In this document: in pieces, positions 2,654 through 6,916 of the stretch
Numbering within the stretch: position 1 is the stretch's first letter
Layout: each line of letters opens with the position of its first letter
NCBI GenBank assembly: GCA_947652115.1
Contig: OX393568.1
Location: 4,897,641-4,961,640 of the forward strand
Direction of reading: 5' to 3'
DNA from: Blastomussa wellsi
Taxonomy: Eukaryota > Cnidaria > Anthozoa > Scleractinia > Plerogyridae
Length of the DNA stretch: 64,000 nucleotides
Made by a program: the position numbers and the translations under genes
Notes under the pieces: generated by a model
The model's input: the letters and a program-made list of their open reading frames with translations, nothing else
Databases searched by the model: none
Told to the model about the DNA's origin: nothing

Positions 2654-5600
2654 ATGGTGAGTTTTGTTTGAAAACATTTTTTTATTATTTTAGTGCTGTA
2701 CGTAACAAGGAGGACGTTCCTTGACCAATTTAATGCAAAAAGAAAACTTTCTAAAATAATCCAGAGAGCGCTGTTGGTCTGTTTTTGCAGCAGAGTGAGA
2801 CTATCTAACAATTTTTTTTTTTCGTCAACAGGAGTTCAAGGTGTTTCTGTTGTGTCTTTCTGTAATATTTGTTGCCACATCTGCAGCCACTGTATGTAAA
2901 TGTGAAGACAAAAAGGTACAAAATAAAGAAATGTCAATTATTTTGAGTACAGTAACTCCGCCGTTATTGAGCTATCCGGATACAAAAGTACCACCCGTCA
3001 ATTTCCATTTAACTCGTGTAGCCAGACTGCCATCTTCATTAAGCATCGTAACGTCCAAAACTGCAAGGAGGTATATATGCATCCAATATTTTAATTTTTC
3101 AGGGTCATTTGAAGAACTTGTAATTGTTCGCACGTGAAAAACTGACTCAGTAGACAACATGATAGATACCATAACTTCTTAGGCCTTTTGTCCTGCATGT
3201 CCAACCTAATGCCTTCTGATGCCTTTAGTTTTGATATTTGATAGAATATCATGTTGAAAAGATCTCAATTTTTTTCTTCTTCTAAATTTGATTAGTCTTA
3301 CGATGCATGATCACGTAAAACATTTTTTTTTCTGATAACTGGTTACAGAAATATCAAACAACTATGGTGATTATCTTTGCAGGAAACCGTGTCCAAGTAC
3401 AAGGTGAAAATAAACGATGGAGATAAAGAGATTGACGAAGAAGTTGAGGTCGACGCTGAGAAGCAAACAGAAACCTTACGTGTTCCAAAGACGGATTCAT
3501 CAACTGCGGGAGAAGTCGACATTGTTTACGACTTTAAAAAGGTAATCAAAATAAGGGAGGCGTGTGCAGAAAGGGCTGTTCGTTTAGGGTCTCGGCTTAT
3601 CGTGTAATCATAAGTATGTTCGGAAGCTGGCTTTCGGTTATGAACTTGTTTTATTTGTCTTTAAATTTAAAGAAAGGAAACACCCAAATAGGTGAATGAA
3701 AACAAAAATCAGCCACGAAAGTTACGTCTATGAAAAAAGGTTAAAACTTTCACCAGATCGCAACTTTTGAATCGATTGATTATTTGCCATCTAGCTGTCG
3801 AATACAGCCGTGACTACCGGAAACGATGAGACAAGTTCTGTATTCGCAGTCCACTTGACACCCAGCGGTCAAAAAAGTCATCATCGAGATCAGTTGCCTG
3901 TTCTGTACCCACTTCGAATTCTTCCTTAACGGAATAATTGTTCTGTTTTGCTCTGTAGAATCTGTTTGAGTAAGCTGATGAAACAATCCATTTGTGAACT
4001 ACGGATGTAGAATATATTTTAGCCCTGAATTTATTATAATATATATTTTGGAAATTAGGAAAGAGAATCTTCAATAATCCAGCGGTCTGAATACTTAACC
4101 CCTTTAATTTTGAATGTTGTTGCGAGCCATGCTACAGTAACAACTTTGTTTATGTTATCCGGTTTTGTTTTAGAACTTGACAATGCAACGACTTTCTGCT
4201 GCAAAAGCTTGTTTTCTGAGTGAATCCACTGACAATATGCCCAAACCTGACGAACTCGTCAAATTGCTCGACCAGGTACGTAATACATTATTAAGATTCT
4301 TTTCAATTATCTGGTAATCATGGAATGGAATTTTAGTATTGCATTGGACCAAGAAGTTCACTTAATAATGTAAGGCTGATCAAACAGCTGGAAACTGATG
4401 GTATATTTAATTTGGCCCAATATTTCGGGTGGACAAAACCAACCTTCAGCAGGGGCATAAAATACAGTAAAAACCCGCATGTAAGAACCTATTGGTTTAA
4501 GAACCTGCTGGCAGAAATTTGCCATTTTAATACCCCAAAATATAAGAACCTTTGTAGCCAAGCAAATATGAGCAGGTTCTTATATGAGGGTTCTAGTACA
4601 TTTTCATATGCAGCTCTTGTTGAAAAGATTCTTTTGCGGGTAATACTGTACTACATATACATTGTTTAGTCAGTTTTGTTAGACTTATGCCAATTCAGTT
4701 ATGAATAAATGTTGTATAGTGAAGGAACAAACCCCAATTTTATTATTTTTTCTGGTAATCAACAACTTTGTCTCCCCCATATAAATTAAGAACCTACTCA
4801 GCCTAAATTGTCAATAACAACCCCAAAATACAAGAACCTATTTTGCCATACTGTAAAAAATGTAGGTTCTTACATGCGGGTTTTTACTGTATAACCTAAG
4901 TATCAGGCCTTCCTAAGGGGAATGGGGAGGTGGAGGGGAAAATAAAATGCTAAGCGGTCCACATAAGTCCACTCTCCAGCGGGTATTTAATTTGGCTAAT
5001 ACTTTTGTTCTTGGGATTCATTACAGCAAGGCACTATGAAAACAAGGAAGGGAACAAACAGTGCATACGAAGTGGTTTCGACCGTCACTGATCGCTCAGA
5101 GTTAAGTGATGAAATGGCTTCTCTGTGTGCAAAGCTGCCTATTTATCGCGCCAAGAAGGCAACTTCAATGTCTCGACGTAAGTTGTATATGTACTAGTTA
5201 ATATTGGGATGAAAGAAGGCAATTCTAGAGTTGTTTATTCCGTGATTGTTGAGAAATCCACCCTAAGTACAAAGATGGCGACTGGTACATTTACCTATAA
5301 TTCTTTGCGCGCGAACATTCTAAAAACGCGAAGAAAAGCCCCTAAACTTTCAAACTCGGCAAGAACAATTTTGTTACTACAGGAACGAATTTCGTTAAAC
5401 TTTAATTTTCTATATACTCTGTGGGCTGTGTCAGGGTTGCAAGGTATTGTGGTAAAATGTACAGCCGCCATCTTTTTTCCTACGTTGGATTGCCAAACAA
5501 AAGTTAAGTTATGACAGCCGAGAAACGAGACGCATATTCCTGAGATGAATATACTTGAGAATGTTTGTACGTGTCGGTGACCAACACGAAAGCCTATGCT

Positions 5601-6916
5601 ACTTTGGTCACTAATTAAGCACACTTTATGTTGGCAATTTATTATTATATTTCATTTAAAATACTGTTAAAGTTATAATTTCTGTAAATAGTGTAAAACA
5701 ATAAAAAAAATCTGAAAAATCTGAAATCTGAAAGAAGAAATTAGGCCAAATGAAAACGCTTATCAGTAGCCAATAGGGAAATAGATGAAGTAACTTACAA
5801 CTACGATAACTGCCCATCTCTTTGTTAACTTAGCGCGACAGTAAGGGACACGACGCTAATTCTTTCAGCAAAGTTAGACTCGCGTACAAATTAACCCCCG
5901 TCTGACAGTCCTTCAGTCAGCCAGTGATCCATAGCTTCAAACCCTTGAAAAGACTCAAAGTAAAATATTTTAAGGTCTTACGTACTGGCATGGATCGGGC
6001 ATGAGTTAATGCAAGAGTTGTTATTTACAGTCGGTTCAAGTTTCGATTGATGTAGGATTAGTTCAAGTGTGGCGTTTTCTCAGTTTAGCTTTGAAACTTA
6101 AAATTAAGTTGCAATGTTACGCTGTAGATAAACGAACCATTTGTTGAGTATCGTATCATGTGTTACTGTTGTGATAATTTTAATTCACTTTTATTTTATT
6201 GGAAGTGCTCCCATCTAGTTGTTATAAAGCTAAGTTAAAGTGCACCTAGCATCAAAATATTTTTTCTGTAAAAATACACCTTTGTACCAGTTCGAAACGC
6301 ATTGCACCTTTCGTTTCTCCTTTTCACCAAATTCTGGTTATTTGTAGCATTAGGAAAACTGTTTATCATTTGTTCCACGACTGAGCCAGAAGGGGCGTGG
6401 GTCTATTCTTGATTTCACATCAAAAATTGATTTGTATCGCATCAAGTCTTTGTAAACATGCATGGAAATCATCTTGTGACGTCAAATCAAGAATCGACCC
6501 ACGCCCCTTCTGACTCGGTCATGGAACGAATAATGCATGGACAGTTTTTCTTAAATACTATAAATGGCCAGAATTTGATGAAAAGGAGAAAAGGAAGGTG
6601 AAATTCGTTTTGAACTGGTGCGAAGGTGTATTTTAGCGCAAAGAATATTTTGGTGTTAGGTGTACTTAATAAATACCTTTCCTTCATTCCTTACCTACCT
6701 ACCCACCTAATTACTTACCTACCTACCACTAAACCAACCACCCTACCTACCTACCAAATTACCCAACATACTTAGTATATATTTACTTATATTGCAGGTT
6801 CGAAGCGGTGGCCGCGTTGCTATAGTTACTGCTACCTGTATAGTACTTGGTGCTATGACGCATATGGTTGGTGCTATTCTTGCTACAAGTGGTGTTGTCA
6901 CTGGATATGTCAGTAA
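2654..6916 (+). CDS. BRI-1: secreted BRICHOS-domain precursor with C-terminal Cys/Tyr/Trp-rich peptide
   Basis: Six-exon model: 2654-2656 (ATG only), 2832-2891, 3383-3541, 4174-4275, 5027-5177, 6798-6916. All introns are GT-AG; the first four are phase 0 and the last is phase 1. The product is 197 residues. Residues 1-21 form a signal peptide (MEFKVFLLCLSVIFV core). Residues 22-74 are the linker typical of BRICHOS proteins, ending in VYDFKK. The BRICHOS domain follows, with its two hallmark cysteines at about 87 (KACFLSE) and 142 (SLCAKLPIY). Residues 159-162 are R-S-K-R, a furin-type site. The last 35 residues contain 8 Cys (positions 4, 8, 15, 22, 25, 29, 30, 34 of the peptide), 8 Tyr and 5 Trp. 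BRICHOS propieces chaperone hydrophobic or beta-hairpin C-terminal peptides, as in the arenicin-type antimicrobial precursors of annelids. The antimicrobial role here is inference; the architecture is read directly. Confidence 0.85.
4463..4891. mobile_element. Mariner-like MITE in BRI-1 intron 4
   Basis: Terminal inverted repeats of about 27 bp (CAGTAAAAACCCGCATG at the left end and its complement at the right) bound 4465-4889, with the dinucleotide TA on both sides. A TA target and a CAGT start fit the Tc1/mariner superfamily. The 425-bp length and absence of an ORF mark it as non-autonomous. It lies wholly inside the intron 4276-5026. Confidence 0.7.
6236..6672. mobile_element. Long fold-back MITE in BRI-1 intron 5
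   Basis: The left arm (from AGTGCACCTAGCATC) and right arm (ending GTTAGGTGTACT) are inverted copies of about 190 bases each, separated by a short spacer near 6430-6475. The inner arms share the word ggggcgtgggtc. No ORF belongs to it. I could not define a target duplication. It lies about 130 bases before the terminal peptide exon of BRI-1. Confidence 0.6.
6690..6770. repeat. CCTA/CTAC microsatellite-like tract
   Basis: Imperfect cctacctac tetranucleotide repeats run up to the branch and acceptor region of the last BRI-1 intron. Confidence 0.6.

What the first reader, a model, noticed from the sequence alone, without database searches (positions are those of the whole stretch)
5027..6916. 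BRI-1: BRICHOS precursor releasing an unusual Cys/Tyr/Trp-rich peptide
The last exon, joined in phase 1 to the end of the BRICHOS domain, starts with R-S-K-R and encodes 35 residues with 8 Cys, 8 Tyr and 5 Trp, i.e. 60% from three residues, with spacing CX3CX6CX6CX2CX3CCX3C. BRICHOS propieces are known to chaperone aggregation-prone C-terminal peptides, and annelid arenicin-type precursors have this order (signal, BRICHOS, peptide). The peptide matches no family I know. An antimicrobial or structural cross-linking role is inference.
Basis: partly seen in the sequence, partly recalled or inferred. Interest (0 to 1): 0.88.

Follow-up and report, generated by a model that had tools for sequence, protein, structure and literature searches.

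The report
Coral BRICHOS precursor of stapled hairpins
A gene from what is likely a stony coral encodes a chaperone-type (BRICHOS) precursor ending in a 35-residue Cys/Tyr/Trp-rich peptide, and it belongs to a large family whose end-peptides differ far more than their precursors and are predicted to be cut free as disulfide-stapled hairpins that likely act on microbes, as similar worm peptides do.

Summary
BRI-1 is a six-exon gene (2654-6916, +), gt-ag throughout, with a Pfam BRICHOS domain (E 4.7e-14); the last exon joins in phase 1 and gives R-S-K-R plus 35 residues with 8 Cys, 8 Tyr, 5 Trp. The peptide is not an orphan. Two more BRICHOS genes in the window end in other 8-Cys peptides behind the same phase-1 intron, and protein searches gave a large family whose named sources are all stony corals. 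Propieces are conserved, the peptides are not (22 BRI-1-type pairs: 86% versus 42% at non-Cys sites). Over 53 peptides Cys spacing is mirror-symmetric beyond shuffles, as nested disulfides of a hairpin would be; AlphaFold2 folds one relative's peptide as a beta-hairpin. Arenicin-3 and alvinellacin share the outer CX3C...CX3C rungs, and alvinellacin the five-intron plan with the peptide in the last exon. Against: BRI-1's own eight Cys are only partly mirrored, its charge is +1, a BRI-2-type relative is modelled as helices, and no transcript of BRI-1 was seen. Best reading: a coral counterpart of the worm BRICHOS antimicrobial precursors with multi-rung ladders and varying cargo; activity is untested.

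The parts
2654..2656 (+). BRI-1 exon 1 coding part (ATG only)
   Evidence: gt donor, frame into exon 2; a TATAAA motif lies at 2535
2832..2915 (+). BRI-1 exon 2: hydrophobic start, read as signal peptide (EFKVFLLCLSVIFVATSAA...)
   Evidence: same N-terminus in relatives; no signal-peptide program was run
3383..3541 (+). BRI-1 exon 3: acidic linker and start of BRICHOS (VYDF)
4174..4275 (+). BRI-1 exon 4: BRICHOS with first conserved Cys (KACFL)
5027..5177 (+). BRI-1 exon 5: end of BRICHOS with second conserved Cys (SLCAKLPIY), phase-1 donor CGTAAGT
6798..6916 (+). BRI-1 exon 6: R-S-K-R site, 35-residue Cys/Tyr/Trp peptide, stop TAA
11755..11922 (-). BRI-2 exon 3-equivalent
   Evidence: BRICHOS E 3.5e-9 for the joined exons
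11118..11213 (-). BRI-2 exon 4-equivalent; first BRICHOS Cys is Arg (CGT)
   Evidence: Cys in 33 of 33 aligned relatives
9511..9706 (-). BRI-2 exon 5-equivalent, phase-1 donor CGTAAGT
9018..9163 (-). BRI-2 last exon: R-S-K-R, 44-residue peptide with eight Cys in CX3C steps, all four mirror sums equal (43)
38192..38251 (+). BRI-3 exon 1: start codon and hydrophobic start
38611..38775 (+). BRI-3 exon 2
   Evidence: BRICHOS E 3.3e-15 for the whole protein
39824..39925 (+). BRI-3 exon 3
41654..41834 (+). BRI-3 exon 4, GC donor (gcaagt), phase 1
42916..43064 (+). BRI-3 last exon: R-F-R-R and 38-residue 8-Cys peptide

Best explanation
BRI-1 encodes a BRICHOS precursor whose last exon carries, behind an R-S-K-R site, a 35-residue Cys/Tyr/Trp-rich peptide that is predicted to be released by a furin-type protease as a disulfide-stapled beta-hairpin and likely acts on microbes at the surface of a coral. 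Shown: gene structure, BRICHOS domain, site, membership of a large family with conserved propieces and divergent end-peptides, mirror-symmetric Cys spacing over the family. Predicted: secretion, cleavage, hairpin fold (AlphaFold2 of a relative), pairing 4-34, 8-30 and probably 15-25 in BRI-1 with Cys22 and Cys29 left over. Inferred: the BRICHOS domain shields the aggregation-prone strands until release; the free hairpin disturbs bacterial membranes, as arenicin and alvinellacin do; paralogues differ so that one animal makes many such peptides.
For: Gene and site. Family: 54 hits at E<=1 for BRI-1, 3 for BRI-3, 125 at E<=0.01 for the profile, 120 of them listed; sources with names are all stony corals. 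Divergence: BRI-1-type pairs with propieces >=80% identical (n=22) average 0.86 in the propiece and 0.42 at non-Cys sites of the end-peptide; BRI-2-type 0.87 and 0.41 (n=15); BRI-3-type 0.85 and 0.67 (n=4). Mirror symmetry of nested Cys pairs: BRI-1-type 31 peptides, summed spread 62 against 155 (interval shuffle) and 184 (residue shuffle), 0 of 2000 as low in either; BRI-2-type 15 peptides, 1 against 20.8 and 168.5, 0 of 2000; BRI-3-type 7 peptides, 12 against 19.0 (20 of 2000) and 62.7 (0 of 2000). AlphaFold2 of P0003 (propiece 75% identical to BRI-1): strands 176-189 and 194-207, block pLDDT 92, 92, 86 for residues 181-208, so its Cys pairs 175-208, 179-204 and 189-194 share one strand register. 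Arenicin-3 and alvinellacin have nested sums 23,23 and 24,24 with the same CX3C ends; P0012 against arenicin-3 has 15 identities (p 0.001, Cys fixed), P0013 against alvinellacin 13 (p 0.005). Preproalvinellacin has five introns with the AMP in the last exon (PMC5431198, passages), as BRI-1 has.
Against: BRI-1's own eight Cys do not mirror as a set: spread 9, p 0.90 by interval and 0.67 by residue shuffle; only 4-34 and 8-30 share a sum, 15-25 is off by two. Its net charge is +1. Three of four BRI-3-type or BRI-2-type outliers are anionic, e.g. P0069-P0071 at -4 to -5, and BRI-3-type median -2, so the family is not uniformly cationic. The model of P0036 (BRI-2-type) shows two helices, not strands. 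BRI-1 itself was not modelled. BRI-1 is not among the four peptides nearest to any worm AMP, and those p values are uncorrected for 55 peptides times 4 references. Relatives are not independent, so shuffle counts overstate significance. No expression or activity data for BRI-1.
Confidence: 0.6

Rival explanations
1. The BRICHOS domain, not the end-peptide, is the working part: a secreted heat- and stress-induced chaperone, with the tail as a client-like appendage under weak constraint.
For: Coral BRICHOS genes rise with heat and low pH, up to 380-fold in Stylophora pistillata (PMC5299404, passages), and early in heat stress in Montipora capitata (PMC8590396, one passage). The propiece is the conserved part.
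Against: A tail under no constraint should not keep a basic site, an open frame, 4-10 Cys and mirror-symmetric spacing in 53 peptides.
Confidence: 0.15
2. The Tyr/Cys/Trp-rich peptide is structural: it cross-links by disulfide or tyrosine chemistry in mucus, mesoglea or skeletal matrix.
For: 21 of 35 residues are C, Y or W; two Cys are left unpaired in the family register, which could link molecules.
Against: End-peptides differ strongly between paralogues with near-identical propieces; several resemble known membrane-active peptides. No matrix proteome was consulted.
Confidence: 0.12
3. The peptide is a secreted toxin or signalling ligand rather than an antimicrobial; Cys-rich variable peptides are also typical of venoms.
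For: Disulfide-rich and variable between paralogues; corals carry other variable Cys-rich families, the SCRiPs (PMC10892658, search listing only).
Against: No Pfam, NCBIfam or convincing PDB sequence match for the peptide; hairpin signature and arenicin-like relatives. Expression in stinging cells was not testable.
Confidence: 0.08
4. The last exon is not translated in this frame: the true transcript skips or reframes it, and the Cys-rich frame is a by-product of TGY/TAY-rich DNA.
For: 24 of 35 codons start pyrimidine-purine; another frame is also open for 98 codons across the exon (6711-7007); no transcript of BRI-1 was seen.
Against: BRI-2 shows the same phase-1 join to R-S-K-R plus 8 Cys; relatives have the same join as one protein on short contigs.
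Confidence: 0.03

Closest known systems
Arenicin-3 and alvinellacin (annelid BRICHOS antimicrobial peptides)
   Same: Precursor order signal, BRICHOS, C-terminal Cys peptide (PMC6780910 section 11); nested Cys with CX3C at both ends; alvinellacin gene with five introns and the AMP in the last exon (PMC5431198 passages).
   Different: Two disulfides and 21-22 residues there; 4-10 Cys and 24-58 residues in the coral set. In Alvinella the chaperone diversifies and the AMP does not (PMC5431198 abstract); here the propiece is the conserved part, though that is a protein-level comparison among paralogues and species, not a selection test.
Two Pocillopora acuta BRICHOS proteins called predicted antimicrobial peptides (PMC12960093)
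   Same: Stony coral, BRICHOS domain, proposed antimicrobial role; found in larval settlers by proteomics (passages).
   Different: The passages I saw describe neither a hairpin or Cys ladder nor the variable last exon; I did not compare the sequences.
Coral BRICHOS domain set of PMC5299404
   Same: 238 BRICHOS sequences from 15 coral species, with the conserved Cys pair, read as stress-related chaperones (passages).
   Different: The passages deal with the domain, not with the end-peptides.
Theta-defensins, hepcidins and AmBRI-44a (multi-disulfide comparators)
   Same: Theta-defensins: single hairpin with three disulfides; hepcidins: four disulfides (PMC13001179 passages). AmBRI-44a: BRICHOS-related, four disulfides, called defensin-like (PMC11767717 passage).
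   Different: Theta-defensins are head-to-tail cyclic; hepcidin connectivity is not a plain nested ladder (recalled); AmBRI-44a sequence was not seen. BRI-2-type peptides would have four or five nested rungs in a linear chain.

Membership tests
BRICHOS domain family (PF04089) | Pfam BRICHOS match above the curated cut-off | tested here: met
   BRI-1 52.8, BRI-2 37.2, BRI-3 56.5 bits against cut-off 25
BRICHOS domain family (PF04089) | Two conserved Cys and one Asp (named so in PMC6265681, passage) | tested here: met
   D, C, C invariant in 33 of 33 aligned relatives and present in BRI-1 and BRI-3. BRI-2 of the window lacks the first Cys.
BRICHOS domain family (PF04089) | BRICHOS fold | tested here: inconclusive
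BRICHOS antimicrobial peptide precursors (arenicin/alvinellacin type) | Order hydrophobic start, proregion with BRICHOS, C-terminal Cys-rich peptide | tested here: met
   definition from PMC6780910 section 11
BRICHOS antimicrobial peptide precursors (arenicin/alvinellacin type) | Basic convertase site before the peptide | tested here: met
   R-S-K-R in BRI-1 and BRI-2, R-F-R-R in BRI-3; cleavage itself untested
BRICHOS antimicrobial peptide precursors (arenicin/alvinellacin type) | Peptide forms a two-stranded sheet closed by nested disulfides | tested here: inconclusive
   Hairpin in the model of relative P0003 and family-wide mirror symmetry; BRI-1 alone not symmetric (p 0.90 and 0.67) and not modelled; P0036 modelled as helices
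BRICHOS antimicrobial peptide precursors (arenicin/alvinellacin type) | Cationic peptide | tested here: inconclusive
   BRI-1 +1, BRI-2 +6, BRI-3 +2; net charge +2 or more in 30 of 33 BRI-1-type, 11 of 15 BRI-2-type, 1 of 7 BRI-3-type
BRICHOS antimicrobial peptide precursors (arenicin/alvinellacin type) | Kills or inhibits microbes | not testable with these tools
   needs synthetic or recombinant peptide
Alpha-hairpinin-like helical hairpins (considered for BRI-2-type only; family recalled) | Two antiparallel helices joined by nested CX3C disulfides | tested here: inconclusive
   P0036 model has helices 187-206 and 215-231, block pLDDT 73-76; Pro lies two after Cys in 10 of 13 cases among 94 CX3C segments, which suits a strand better than the middle of a helix

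The most novel reading that the evidence does not exclude
Stony corals run a cassette defence system: one frozen BRICHOS chaperone propiece delivers a diversifying set of last-exon peptides, each a linear hairpin closed by a mirror-symmetric ladder of two to five nested disulfides, the reverse of Alvinella, where the chaperone varies and the peptide is fixed; and the gene plan of five introns with the peptide alone in the last exon would predate the split of cnidarians and bilaterians.
Probability: 0.4. Interest if true: 0.78.

Novelty: new variant of a known kind. Interest (0 to 1): 0.62.

Why it matters
A 2019 review states that BRICHOS antimicrobial peptides had been identified in polychaetes only (PMC6780910 section 11); a 2026 paper calls two coral BRICHOS proteins predicted antimicrobials (PMC12960093 passages). 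If the reading here is right, corals have a much larger and more varied set of such peptides, and the strongly heat-induced coral BRICHOS genes (PMC5299404 passages) would be a defence response and not only a chaperone response. The nested-ladder rule gives a testable prediction of disulfide pairing from sequence alone, and linear hairpins with four or five rungs would be useful scaffolds for stable peptides.

Tried and rejected
Whole-genome search for further paralogues (genome search, own, PF04089) did not complete in 8 tries, so paralogue number, dN/dS and neighbours beyond the window are unknown. First and second exon of BRI-2: no candidate on the gene strand up to 24,000 (best E 0.062, against 0.022 on the wrong strand). 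More cassette-like last exons in the window: only the two at 6798 (+) and 9163 (-) fit the R-X-[KR]-R phase-1 pattern with 4 or more Cys; the pattern does not cover BRI-3. Known family for the peptides alone: none in Pfam at E<=1 for the three window peptides, none in NCBIfam for BRI-1's (P0036 has a chance-level E 0.13 to a Cys-Xaa-Xaa-Xaa repeat model), none in the PDB for BRI-2's, and for BRI-1's only a lectin stretch of 15 residues at E 0.037. First symmetry statistic (exact mirror pairs): 95 of 122 possible pairs against 67.5 by residue and 80.8 by interval shuffle; BRI-1 itself p 0.999; interval shuffles of single BRI-2-type peptides were not significant (0.07 to 1.0) because their spacing is periodic. 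Paired Tyr in place of a Cys pair (P0031 Y18/Y32, P0019 Y7/Y20) was picked by eye and is only suggestive. In one search, 250 of 315 Cys lie in strict mirror pairs, but the axis was chosen to maximise them. Print: searches showed no listing on a variable end-peptide family or Cys ladder in coral BRICHOS proteins; the library lacks most subscription papers. Papers: section 11 of PMC6780910 was read; PMC5431198 abstract and passages; PMC5299404, PMC12960093, PMC8590396, PMC9714404, PMC6265681, PMC11820242 (BRICHOS not mentioned), PMC13001179 and PMC11767717 passages only; the rest listings.

Rows dropped: 2 of 55 end-peptides have under 4 Cys and were not tested (P0014, P0059); P0026 was dropped as having the same end-peptide as P0013, and P0076, same end-peptide as P0012, was not added. 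Proteins without a recognisable site or tail were left out (listed; some were cut by hand later: P0011, P0022-P0025, P0038, P0055, P0057 and 18 more). Groups were assigned by hand.
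Full report
What is there. Six exons between 2654 and 6916 on the + strand, each flanked by ag and gt, read through as 205 residues; the last intron (5178-6797) is in phase 1, so that C|GT forms the first Arg of R-S-K-R, and the last exon gives 35 residues with 8 Cys, 8 Tyr and 5 Trp and then TAA. Pfam finds BRICHOS at E 4.7e-14. The composition is not chance: no other of 29,410 stop-free 35-codon windows in the six frames comes near 21 C+Y+W, the second (13) being the end-peptide of another BRICHOS gene, and 20 Markov sequences of the same length peak at 9-12.

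A search with the exons found two more BRICHOS genes. BRI-2 on the - strand (11922 to 9018) has exons equivalent to 3-6, the same CGTAAGT phase-1 donor and the same R-S-K-R at the start of the last exon, followed by 44 residues with eight Cys in CX3C steps. BRI-3 on the + strand (38192-43064) has a GC donor before its last exon, which gives R-F-R-R and 38 residues with eight Cys. Pfam BRICHOS: 3.5e-9 and 3.3e-15. BRI-2 may be failing: no first exons were found, and its first BRICHOS Cys is Arg, while 33 of 33 aligned relatives have Cys.

The family. BRI-1 finds 54 proteins at E<=1, BRI-3 finds 3, and a profile of 33 relatives finds 125 at E<=0.01, of which 120 were listed. The sources that carry names are Oculina, Porites, Pocillopora, Montipora, Acropora, Orbicella, Desmophyllum and Stylophora species, all stony corals; many entries carry no name. 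In the tree of 61 propieces BRI-1 sits with four Oculina patagonica proteins (support 95/96), BRI-2 with seven unnamed BRI-2-type proteins (97/89) and BRI-3 with an Oculina protein (88/83), so the window likely comes from a stony coral. Of 34 relatives with an end-peptide in the first set, 24 lie on contigs of 922-2053 bases, shorter than the 4,263-base gene here; I infer spliced transcripts. In 36 other proteins holding the end of exon 5 without being in the peptide set, 27 run on as R-K (26) or R-E (1) at the place where BRI-1 exon 5 ends in CGTAAG, as a genomic read-through would; the other 9 end early, carry a cassette or have another tail. In 32 exon-3 fragments 31 run on as D-F/I-K/E-K/R-V, as a gt donor there would give.

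Conserved carrier, variable cargo. For BRI-1-type pairs with propieces at least 80% identical (n=22) the mean is 0.86 in the propiece, 0.49 in the end-peptide and 0.42 at its non-Cys sites; for BRI-2-type (n=15) 0.87, 0.51, 0.41; for BRI-3-type (n=4) 0.85, 0.74, 0.67. So BRI-1 and BRI-2 types vary much more in the cargo, BRI-3 less so. This is a protein-level contrast; short peptides align poorly and no codon test was possible.

Mirror-symmetric cysteines. Numbering the Cys of each end-peptide and pairing first with last, second with second last and so on, the sums of positions are constant or nearly so: BRI-2 43,43,43,43; BRI-3 41,41,41,43; P0040 five times 54; P0067 35,35,35; P0003 35,35,37,35. 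Over the 53 of 55 peptides with at least 4 Cys, the summed spread is far below shuffles of the intervals between Cys (BRI-1-type 62 against a mean of 155 and BRI-2-type 1 against 20.8, 0 of 2000 as low in each; BRI-3-type 12 against 19.0, 20 of 2000) and below residue shuffles (0 of 2000 in each group). Peptides with odd Cys numbers were allowed to drop one Cys, in the data and in the shuffles. Relatives are not independent, so these are not probabilities. This is what nested disulfides of a hairpin would leave. BRI-1 itself is a poor example: 4-34 and 8-30 share the sum 38, 15-25 is at 40, the same +2 step as in P0003, P0005 and P0017, and Cys22 and Cys29 remain; where P0017 has a partner for Cys22, BRI-1 has Tyr16. 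Its own symmetry is not significant (p 0.90 and 0.67).

Comparison with the known. Annelid BRICHOS antimicrobial peptides have the same precursor order, and a 2019 review calls them polychaete-only (PMC6780910 section 11). Arenicin-3 and alvinellacin show nested sums 23,23 and 24,24 with CX3C at both ends, which BRI-1 shares in its outer two rungs. P0012 of Oculina has 15 identities with arenicin-3 and P0013 13 with alvinellacin, p 0.001 and 0.005 with Cys held fixed but uncorrected for 55 by 4 comparisons; BRI-1 is not among the nearest four for any of the four references. The alvinellacin gene has five introns and carries the peptide in its last exon (PMC5431198 passages); intron positions and phases were not compared. 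There the chaperone diversifies and the peptide does not (abstract). In corals, BRICHOS proteins as such are known: 238 domain sequences in 15 species and strong induction by heat and low pH (PMC5299404 passages), and two predicted antimicrobials in Pocillopora settlers (PMC12960093 passages).

Mechanism. Most likely the precursor enters the secretory pathway, the BRICHOS domain holds the strongly strand-forming, Tyr/Trp-rich tail while disulfides close, a furin-type protease cuts after R-S-K-R, and the hairpin acts on microbes at the coral surface. The gene, domain, site and family patterns are shown; secretion, cutting and fold are predicted; the chaperone step and the antimicrobial act are inferred from annelid and mammalian relatives. 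BRI-1's low charge and spare Cys leave room for a different use, such as cross-linking or dimer formation.

Verdict. A true observation, with an interpretation that is right in outline but too narrow: a new variant of a known kind.

Noticed in passing
16076-31150: Inverted terminal repeats (162 nt, 99%, and 92 nt, 100%) enclose frames with matches to Pox_A32 (packaging ATPase type, E 1.2e-7), an integrase core (E 3.3e-7, just under the Pfam cut-off) and Endonuclease_7 (E 2.2e-6): a Polinton/Maverick-like element between BRI-2 and BRI-3.
   Followed up: partly
13442-15211 (+): 589-codon frame with reverse transcriptase (E 8.7e-7) and GIY-YIG (E 1.4e-4), both just under the Pfam cut-offs: Penelope-like element upstream of BRI-2, where its missing first exons would lie.
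   Followed up: partly
11410-11589 (-): Short frame in a BRI-2 intron that by eye resembles a GIY-YIG piece; Pfam found nothing at E<=0.01.
   Followed up: partly
54341-61365: BEL/Pao-type retrotransposon on the - strand (Peptidase_A17 E 1.1e-48, integrase) between identical direct repeats of at least 300 nt at 54341-54640 and 61066-61365.
   Followed up: partly
52492-53142 (+): Frame with a SET domain (E 1.1e-22) and a Pre-SET remnant, histone methyltransferase type.
   Followed up: no
6238-6667 (+): Two nested imperfect inverted repeats (114 nt, 82%; 69 nt, 84%) in the last intron of BRI-1, just before the peptide exon.
   Followed up: partly
41834-41840 (+): BRI-3 uses a GC splice donor (gcaagt); Oculina P0056 reads on as D-E-G-K at the same place, as if the donor were conserved.
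   Followed up: partly
12504-12563 and 41548-41602: Perfect TTGA x15 and TAA x18 microsatellites near BRI-2 and in a BRI-3 intron.
   Followed up: no
P0069-P0071 (relatives): End-peptides with ten Cys in perfect five-rung mirror spacing but net charge -4 to -5, unlike cationic antimicrobials.
   Followed up: partly
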